Shown here piece by piece: positions 36,807 to 38,697 of a stretch of 64,000 nucleotides of DNA; positions within the stretch are counted from its first letter, which is position 1; each line of letters starts with the position of its first letter. Below the pieces are notes generated by a model. It ran no database searches and was not told the DNA's origin. It saw only the letters and a list, made by a program, of their open reading frames with translations. A program made the translations under genes and the position numbers. This DNA comes from Thermoleophilaceae bacterium (GTDB lineage Bacteria; Actinomycetota; Thermoleophilia; Solirubrobacterales; Thermoleophilaceae), in contig DASUWY010000060.1 in assembly GCA_036378175.1 (NCBI GenBank), positions 1 through 64,000 on the forward strand, in the 5' to 3' direction.

Positions 36807-37107
36807 TTACAAAGGCGCGCGCCTGAAGCGCAGCGCGCCGCCGCCATCGATCACACGCTTCGCCCTTTCCCTTGTGATGCAAGGGGAATCCGAAGCGCGT
36901 GACACGGCCCGGGCCGCCGACCCGCTCCAACCCCTTTGGCCGGAGCGCGAAGCCACGCGACGCCGGGGCCTGAGCAGGGTCGATGGTGCCGGGCTGGGAA
37001 CTCCCGCCGGCGTAAGCCGGCGGCCCAGAACGGCACCATCGACCCTGCCGGCCGCGCCACACAGCAGAAGGTGGTCAAGCGCGCCCAACCACGCCTACCC
37101 TTAACCC
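36807..37107. other. gap between Zn-ribbon gene and rnpB
   Basis: About 300 bp without a convincing gene. GCGCGC-rich sequence follows the Zn-ribbon stop, and the main structure is the long palindrome at 36974-37048. The rnpB promoter should lie between 37049 and 37107, but I see no clear -35/-10 pair. Confidence 0.5.
36974..37048 (+). repeat. long palindromic element, copy 1
   Basis: A 75-bp near-perfect hairpin. The outer stem 36974-36990 pairs with 37032-37048 without mismatch. The inner part is CTGGG / CCCAG, then an asymmetric internal loop (AACTCCC on the 5' side, GG on the 3' side), then GCCGGC-GTAA-GCCGGC with a GNRA-type tetraloop. The same inner architecture recurs at 37503-37581 and 37755-37837 with different outer stems. 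There is no poly-T tail, so it is not a standard terminator. Confidence 0.85.
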
Positions 37108-37442
37108 GCTGGCTATGCAGCCGCGGCCCCCGGAGAGAAAACCGGCGGTCGAGGAAAGTCCGGACACCGCAGGGCAGGGTGGTCGGGAAATCTGACCCGG
37201 GGAAACCCGCGGGAAAGTGCCACAGAAATGACACCGCCTAAGCGGCGGACCCTCACGTGAGGTCCGTCGCCGGTAAGGGTGAAATGGTGCGGTAAGAGCG
37301 CACCGGCGGCGTGGTGACACGTCGGCCAGGCAAACCCCACCCGGTGCAAGGCCAAGCAGGGACGTTGACGCTGCCCGCCGAGTCCCAGGTAGGCCGCAAA
37401 GATGGATGGCTGCACTCGACAGGATCCGGCTTATCGGCCAGC
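37108..37442 (+). ncRNA. rnpB: RNase P RNA (type A)
   Basis: Catalytic RNA of RNase P, which trims tRNA 5' ends. Universally conserved blocks are present: GAGGAAAGTCCGGACACC from 37152, GGGGAAACCCGCGGGAAAG near 37200, AAGGGTGAAATGGTGCGGTA with GAGCGCACCGG around 37276-37305, and CACTCGACAGGATCCGGCTT near 37413. The ends GCTGGC (37108-37113) and GCCAGC (37437-37442) pair as helix P1. The exact ends are inferred from this pairing. A strong terminator follows at once. Confidence 0.95.
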
Positions 37443-37446
37443 TAAG

Positions 37447-37480
37447 GAAGAGCCCCGCCTGGTGCGGGGCTCTTCTATTT
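37447..37480 (+). terminator. intrinsic terminator of rnpB
   Basis: GAAGAGCCCCGC (37447-37458) pairs perfectly with GCGGGGCTCTTC (37464-37475) around loop CTGGT, followed by TATTT. It lies 4 bp behind the end of RNase P RNA. Confidence 0.9.
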
Positions 37481-37502
37481 GCCTTGTTTCGGCTATGGCT
37501 GT

Positions 37503-37581
37503 GGGTTGAGCGGGTTCCCCGCCCCGCTCTGGGCCGCCGGCTTGCGCCGAGGGGAGTTCCCAGAGCGGGAACGTCGAACCC
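37503..37581 (-). repeat. long palindromic element, copy 2 (inverted)
   Basis: In opposite orientation to copies 1 and 3. CCCGCTCTGGG (37523-37533) pairs with CCCAGAGCGGG (37559-37569), and the outer arms GGGTT/AACCC close the structure with an insertion on one side. Read on the minus strand it has the same AACTCCC versus GG internal loop and a GCAA (GNRA) tetraloop. It shares TTCGACGTTCCC with copy 3. The stretch 37443-37858 holds the rnpB terminator and copies 2 and 3; no gene is evident in it. Confidence 0.8.
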
Positions 37582-37754
37582 GGCCGGCGCGCGACGTGAG
37601 CCATTGACGATTCACCGCCGATCGTCACGAGCGGCTCGCCCGCAGCATGCGCACATCTACCGGACGCGGACGGGAAGATCCGCAACCACTGGCCGCGCTG
37701 AAGTAGGAAGTGGCGCTGAAGCCAGACAGCCTTAGTCCCTCGGCGACGCCTGTG

Positions 37755-37837
37755 CCGGGTGAGTTCGACGTTCCCACTCTGGGAACTCCCGGCGGCCCCA
37801 GCCGCCGGCCCAGAGTGGGAAAGTTGAACTCACCCGG
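37755..37837 (+). repeat. long palindromic element, copy 3
   Basis: An 83-bp hairpin with 29-nt outer arms (37755-37783 and 37809-37837) that pair with only a couple of mismatches. The inner part is again AACTCCC on the 5' side versus GG on the 3' side, then GGCGGC/GCCGCC with loop CCCA. It ends 21 bp before the stop codon of the convergent SRPBCC gene at 37859, so it may also act as a transcript end for that gene. Confidence 0.85.
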
Positions 37838-38637: not shown

Positions 38638-38666
38638 CCCGTTCGCTTGGTAAGTCAACACTAACC

Positions 38667-38697
38667 GTAAGTCTAGACTTACCATCGCGAAAGTCAA
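38667..38697 (-). promoter_or_regulatory. promoter and ArsR operator of the ArsR-SRPBCC operon
   Basis: On the minus strand TTGACT (38697-38692) and TAGACT (38675-38670) are spaced 16 bp. The -10 lies inside a perfect 16-bp palindrome GTAAGTCTAGACTTAC (38667-38682). A further half-site GTAAGTC is at 38650-38656. Binding of ArsR to the palindrome would cover the -10. Confidence 0.75.

What the first reader, a model, noticed from the sequence alone, without database searches (positions are those of the whole stretch)
36974..37837. Family of long palindromes with a fixed internal loop and variable outer stems around rnpB
Seen: three hairpins of 75-83 bp (36974-37048, 37503-37581, 37755-37837) within 865 bp on both sides of RNase P RNA. 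All keep CTGGG, then AACTCCC on one side against GG on the other, then a GC-rich six-bp stem with a four-base loop (GTAA, GCAA, CCCA). The outer stems differ between copies yet remain paired, so substitutions look compensatory. Copy 2 is inverted; copies 2 and 3 share TTCGACGTTCCC. Known: REP/MITE-type palindromes exist, but I do not recognise this one. Inferred: a structured element maintained at RNA level or a mobile palindrome spread without a transposase in this window.
Basis: partly seen in the sequence, partly recalled or inferred. Interest (0 to 1): 0.78.

Follow-up and report, generated by a model that had tools for sequence, protein, structure and literature searches.

The report
Mobile-looking hairpin family, three copies by rnpB
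Three long DNA hairpins beside the RNase P RNA gene belong to a dispersed family of about 85-base palindromes found in a few related bacteria, where relatives carry copies inside core enzyme genes without breaking the reading frame, much like the 'selfish' palindromes of Rickettsia.

Summary
The three hairpins are real, far beyond chance, and homologous, although the outer stem of copy 2 has decayed. They are not an rnpB-specific RNA. A covariance model built only from other genomes finds all three window copies. It also finds the same architecture in other Solirubrobacterales: a ~26-bp outer stem free to vary, a fixed 5-nt bulge AACTC on the 5' side, a short inner stem and a small loop. It is common in one family ('67-14'), nearly absent elsewhere in the class and phylum. 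The window genome has only these three copies. In the 67-14 family, most copies lie inside conserved genes (nuoG, nuoF, nuoC, dnaX, E2 dehydrogenase, recJ, murC), in either orientation but always in one reading frame per orientation. Empty sites exist. Two copies in different genes of one genome are 98% identical in their arms while their flanks match only at chance level. Best explanation: a non-autonomous mobile palindrome working like Rickettsia palindromic elements, apparently kept as a structure and probably read through its unpaired AACTC by an unidentified enzyme. No Y1/RAYT, IS110 or reverse transcriptase gene tracks it. It is a new variant of a known kind; the spreading mechanism is inferred, not shown.

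The parts
36974..37048 (+). Hairpin copy 1, between the short ORF after lexA and rnpB; ~26-bp outer stem, AACTC bulge, 8-bp inner stem, GTAA loop
   Evidence: R3 (built without window copies) E=1.7e-9
36999..37003 (+). Conserved 5-nt bulge AACTC of copy 1
37503..37581 (-). Hairpin copy 2, inverted, downstream of the rnpB terminator; outer stem partly decayed
   Evidence: R3 E=6e-4
37554..37558 (-). Conserved bulge AACTC of copy 2
37755..37837 (+). Hairpin copy 3, intergenic; near-perfect stem, CCCA loop
   Evidence: R3 E=2.4e-9
37784..37788 (+). Conserved bulge AACTC of copy 3
37105..37449 (+). rnpB (RNase P RNA, bacterial class A): neighbour, not part of the element
   Evidence: Rfam RF00010, 218.6 bits, E=1.3e-69
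37446..37476 (+). rnpB's own terminator-like hairpin (context); the three palindromes have no T-run

Best explanation
The three hairpins are copies of a short (~70-90 bp) non-autonomous dispersed palindromic element of Solirubrobacterales. Shown: one architecture in many copies, empty and filled sites, near-identical copies in unrelated genes of one genome, and insertion into coding genes in one reading frame per orientation. Inferred: the element is moved by a trans-acting enzyme that recognises the folded single strand through its unpaired AACTC bulge and the G-C pairs round it, not through the sequence of the stems, so stems may drift as long as they pair. Selection for foldability, perhaps helped by arm-to-arm templated repair, keeps the arms complementary. 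In coding genes only one frame is seen, giving a G/P/S/T-rich linker peptide (..PGVP.. or ..GTPGEVRP..), presumably because it is tolerated. In the window genome three copies entered the intergenic space round rnpB and probably do nothing essential there.
For: A model from 43 non-window copies finds all three window copies. Covariation in those 43 is 0.736 against 0.186 in shuffles and at most 0.18 in slid controls; 94.7% of cells pair. The A[AG]CTC bulge and a CG pair ~17 bp outside it are nearly invariant. Filter not biased by pairing: of 141 database matches to the core pattern, every match with at least 23/26 outer pairs whose record I could name is a Solirubrobacterales MAG, and nearly all others have 17 or fewer. 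In copies assigned to identified genes, 30 of 30 are in one frame per orientation, 13 same and 17 opposite to the gene. In G011 the nuoG and nuoC copies have 98% identical arms, flanks 33-35%. Empty sites: G009 nuoG linker; nuoF in G008 and G014 against G011. Close copies show 24 compensated double changes where 4.8 double changes are expected if arms change independently.
Against: No transposase was found: Y1_Tnp, RVT_1 and IS110 families are absent from most carrier genomes. Copy numbers are low (about 1-10 per genome, 3 here), and no target-site duplication could be delineated. The same linkers are filled in several species, which could be one old insertion with turnover rather than repeated transposition. 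Recognition through AACTC is inferred from conservation alone. Window copies are intergenic, so the in-frame behaviour is shown only in relatives.
Confidence: 0.74

Rival explanations
1. A cis-acting structured RNA (RNase III site, mRNA stabiliser or terminator) conserved for a host function near rnpB and in operons.
For: Strong covariation with constant unpaired bases, as in functional RNAs. G012 copies add an apical stem whose internal loop is also constant while its stem varies. Two copies lie just after rnpB.
Against: Copies lie in both orientations relative to the host gene (13 same, 17 opposite) and mostly inside coding genes. No T-run after the hairpins. Patchy presence; none near rnpB in other f1 genomes; none in the same-genus genome. 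No Rfam match to the hairpins.
Confidence: 0.12
2. A REP-type palindrome moved by a RAYT (Y1 HUH) transposase.
For: Small palindromes, often paired head to head 20-45 nt apart as in REP dimers; a bulge in the stem; some REPs also lie inside genes (PMC3733652).
Against: No GTAG or CGTC tag is conserved at either end. Stem ~26 bp against 5-13 bp in REPs. Y1_Tnp found in only one carrier among the 67-14 family genomes.
Confidence: 0.06
3. Palindromes kept perfect mainly by mutation (intra-strand template switching or gene conversion between arms), with no recognition of the hairpin.
For: Excess of concerted changes in the two arms of close copies. G008 keeps a well-paired palindrome after losing the bulge.
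Against: Does not explain why the unpaired AACTC is nearly invariant, nor the near-identical copies in different genes. Decayed copies exist (window copy 2).
Confidence: 0.08

Closest known systems
Rickettsia palindromic elements (RPE) and the Wolbachia equivalents
   Same: Short palindromes with long stem-loops, both intergenic and fused in frame inside conserved protein genes, no known transposase; orthologous sites may hold different or no elements (PMC2229807, PMC3767692). RPEs are also reported in rnpB and tmRNA genes.
   Different: Here stems vary freely with compensation round a fixed AACTC bulge, both orientations occur in genes, size ~70-90 against 100-150 bp, host is a high-GC actinobacterium, and no sequence relation to RPE was shown. 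Window copies flank rnpB and are not inside it.
GTAG/CGTC REPs and REPtrons (RAYT)
   Same: Small dispersed palindromes, head-to-head dimers, occasional intragenic copies (PMC3733652).
   Different: No end tag, far longer stem, no RAYT in most carriers.
MITEs such as NEMIS, ERIC, RUP
   Same: Non-autonomous, folding end to end, may be fused to reading frames.
   Different: No TA ends, target duplication or parent insertion sequence found; nearly the whole element is stem.
PARCEL repeats and nematomorph mitochondrial coding palindromes
   Same: Palindromic DNA read as protein (PMC2996958, PMC6649704).
   Different: PARCELs are tandem 25-residue repeats; the mitochondrial palindromes lie in conserved protein regions and are not described in the abstract as a dispersed element family.

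Membership tests
RPE-like in-frame palindromic element | Palindrome dispersed at unrelated sites in a genome | tested here: met
   Relatives: about 7-10 copies in G001 and G012. In the window genome only three copies, all at one place.
RPE-like in-frame palindromic element | Inserted inside conserved protein genes without breaking the frame | tested here: met
   NuoG, NuoF, NuoC, DnaX, E2, RecJ, MurC-B by Pfam; 30 of 30 in one frame per orientation. Only in relatives; window copies are intergenic.
RPE-like in-frame palindromic element | Sequence kinship with Rickettsia RPE families | not tested
   No RPE sequences were compared. Model search found nothing outside Solirubrobacterales in 396 genomes of the phylum.
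GTAG REP / RAYT | GTAG tetranucleotide at one end | tested here: not met
   No such tag in flanks of 25 copies.
GTAG REP / RAYT | Y1 transposase in carrier genomes | tested here: not met
   3 of 50 genomes of the carrier family, only one a carrier.
MITE | Target-site duplication and a parent insertion sequence sharing the ends | tested here: inconclusive
   nuoF and nuoG empty sites show insertion but no clear duplication; parent element not found.
Intrinsic terminator | T-run directly after the hairpin | tested here: not met
   On the + strand only rnpB's own terminator scores; the two minus-strand hits lie inside rnpB and no palindrome scores.
Known Rfam RNA | Reaches a family's gathering score | tested here: not met
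   Only rnpB and two tRNAs in the window.

The most novel reading that the evidence does not exclude
A transposition system in Actinomycetota that recognises a DNA or RNA hairpin purely by structure (a fixed AACTC bulge in an otherwise free stem) and has seeded core genes with tolerated linker peptides, using an enzyme outside the Y1, IS110 and reverse-transcriptase families.
Probability: 0.27. Interest if true: 0.8.

Novelty: new variant of a known kind. Interest (0 to 1): 0.62.

Why it matters
In-frame palindromes are best known from Rickettsia, an intracellular, reduced-genome lineage; their movement has stayed unexplained. A second, unrelated-looking case in high-GC actinobacteria, with stems free to vary and one fixed unpaired motif, points to what the moving machinery reads and gives clear empty/filled sites in essential genes (complex I, clamp loader) to test it. 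It also warns that G/P-rich linkers in such proteins can be insertion scars.

Tried and rejected
Rfam: no match to the hairpins. Plasmid and phage records by DNA similarity: none. IMG/VR pattern scan gave 20 contigs, none with a paired outer stem. RAYT, reverse transcriptase and IS110 families: no consistent presence in carriers. Short pattern GGGAACTCCC..CCC alone is too noisy in GC-rich genomes; pairing or the model is needed. First count of reading frames included spurious long ORFs of GC-rich DNA; only copies in identified genes or their homologue groups are used for the 30/30 figure. attC sites considered and set aside, from my own knowledge: attC keeps its outer boxes and varies the loop end, the reverse of this element. 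Literature searches found no report of palindromic elements in this order, though the library holds only open-licence papers.

Full report
What is there. Three palindromes lie at 36974-37048 (+), 37503-37581 (-) and 37755-37837 (+), on both sides of rnpB (37105-37449, RF00010) and outside the genes identified nearby: lexA upstream, gltB downstream. Copies 1 and 3 are near-perfect hairpins with z-scores near -10; copy 2 has a decayed outer stem. Each has, from outside inwards, a ~26-bp stem, GGG, a 5-nt bulge AACTC, CC plus a few more pairs, a 4-nt loop, and GGCCC on the return strand. Similarity between copies ends at the hairpin edge. The core occurs nowhere else in the 4.29-Mb genome.

It is a family. 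A loose pattern search over the order showed that some relatives carry the same core in long hairpins. A model from 13 copies found hits in 24 of 232 genomes of the order, nearly all in family f2 and, within it, in three genera. Forty-three non-window copies align without trouble: 28 of 30 pairs show changes on both sides, 94.7% of cells pair, covariation score 0.736 against 0.186 for shuffles and 0.08-0.18 for slid controls. The model from those 43 (R3) then finds the window copies at E = 1.7e-9, 2.4e-9 and 6e-4, which ties them to the family without circularity. In 399 genomes of the class and 396 of the phylum, only f2, the window genome and one f4 genome (G072) respond; long hairpins of other kinds do not score. 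G001 is 'Solirubrobacterales bacterium 67-14' by contig identity. In a database-wide pattern scan the outer pairing is bimodal: 23-26 of 26 pairs in Solirubrobacterales MAGs, 17 or fewer in nearly all other records.

Where copies sit in relatives. Many lie inside conserved genes: nuoG, nuoF, nuoC, dnaX, the E2 acyltransferase, recJ and a murC-murB fusion. The nuoC and recJ inserts fall inside conserved domains. In 30 copies assigned to identified genes, every one is read in the same frame for its orientation, giving ..PGVP.. when opposite and ..GTPG.. when same; 13 are in the gene's own orientation and 17 opposite. None of the three core frames has a stop, so the bias reflects the peptide, not stop avoidance (inference). 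The nuoG linker holds no copy in G009 (protein 88% identical to G006), one in several species in either orientation, and two in G006. nuoF of G011 has a clean insert relative to G008 and G014. In f1, the rnpB flanks of relatives have no copy; by eye, G222 has about 75 bp between the small gene and rnpB where the window has about 300.

Spread and structure. In G011 the copies in nuoG and nuoC have 98% identical arms while their flanks match only at chance level (33-35%), which marks recent spread and gives an element of roughly 85 nt. Pairs of copies in head-to-head orientation 20-45 nt apart are common. Among copies with at most 15% arm divergence there are 24 compensated double changes against 4.8 double changes expected by independence (pairs are not independent). 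In G012 most copies carry an added apical stem whose internal loop is constant while its stem varies. Constant unpaired bases with free but paired stems suggest recognition of a folded strand. This last step is inference.

What it is not. No GTAG tag and no consistent Y1 transposase, so not a RAYT REP. IS110 and reverse transcriptase genes do not track it. No T-run, so not a terminator. Not in Rfam. No related plasmid, phage or viral record was found with the queries used. The nearest known kind is the Rickettsia palindromic element, which it resembles in behaviour. Kinship to RPE was not tested and is not claimed.

Judgement. The rnpB setting is incidental; the wider finding is an RPE-like element in Solirubrobacterales with structure-level conservation. 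Movement and neutrality in the window are likely but unproven, and the enzyme is unknown.

Noticed in passing
L106 4-83, L107 2456-2535, L108 2275-2354, L109 2271-2350, L110 13-92 (G040): Near-identical variant hairpins (bulge CACTC) sit at the very ends of five contigs of one MAG, so assemblies probably break at these repeats and copy numbers are underestimated.
   Followed up: no
L344, L125, L142, L351, L353, L355 (G012): Subfamily with an extra apical stem: constant internal loop (GTGAG / GATAGC) but freely varying, paired stem; copies in several places of one genome.
   Followed up: partly
L286 near 1505-1563 (G008 nuoG linker): A well-paired palindrome at the usual nuoG site that has lost the AACTC bulge.
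   Followed up: no
L129 1501-1567 and L346 ~1501-1566 (G072): Two copies in a different family of the order; one has AAATC in place of AACTC.
   Followed up: partly
window 38648-38684: Separate palindrome (TGGTAAGTCAACACTAAC / GTAAGTCTAGACTTACCA) at the start of an ArsR-type regulator gene and upstream of gltB; may be its operator.
   Followed up: no
L296 (G036:C89:5445-7898): The nuoG match of G036 holds one in-frame TAA stop, so the gene may be broken or misassembled there.
   Followed up: no
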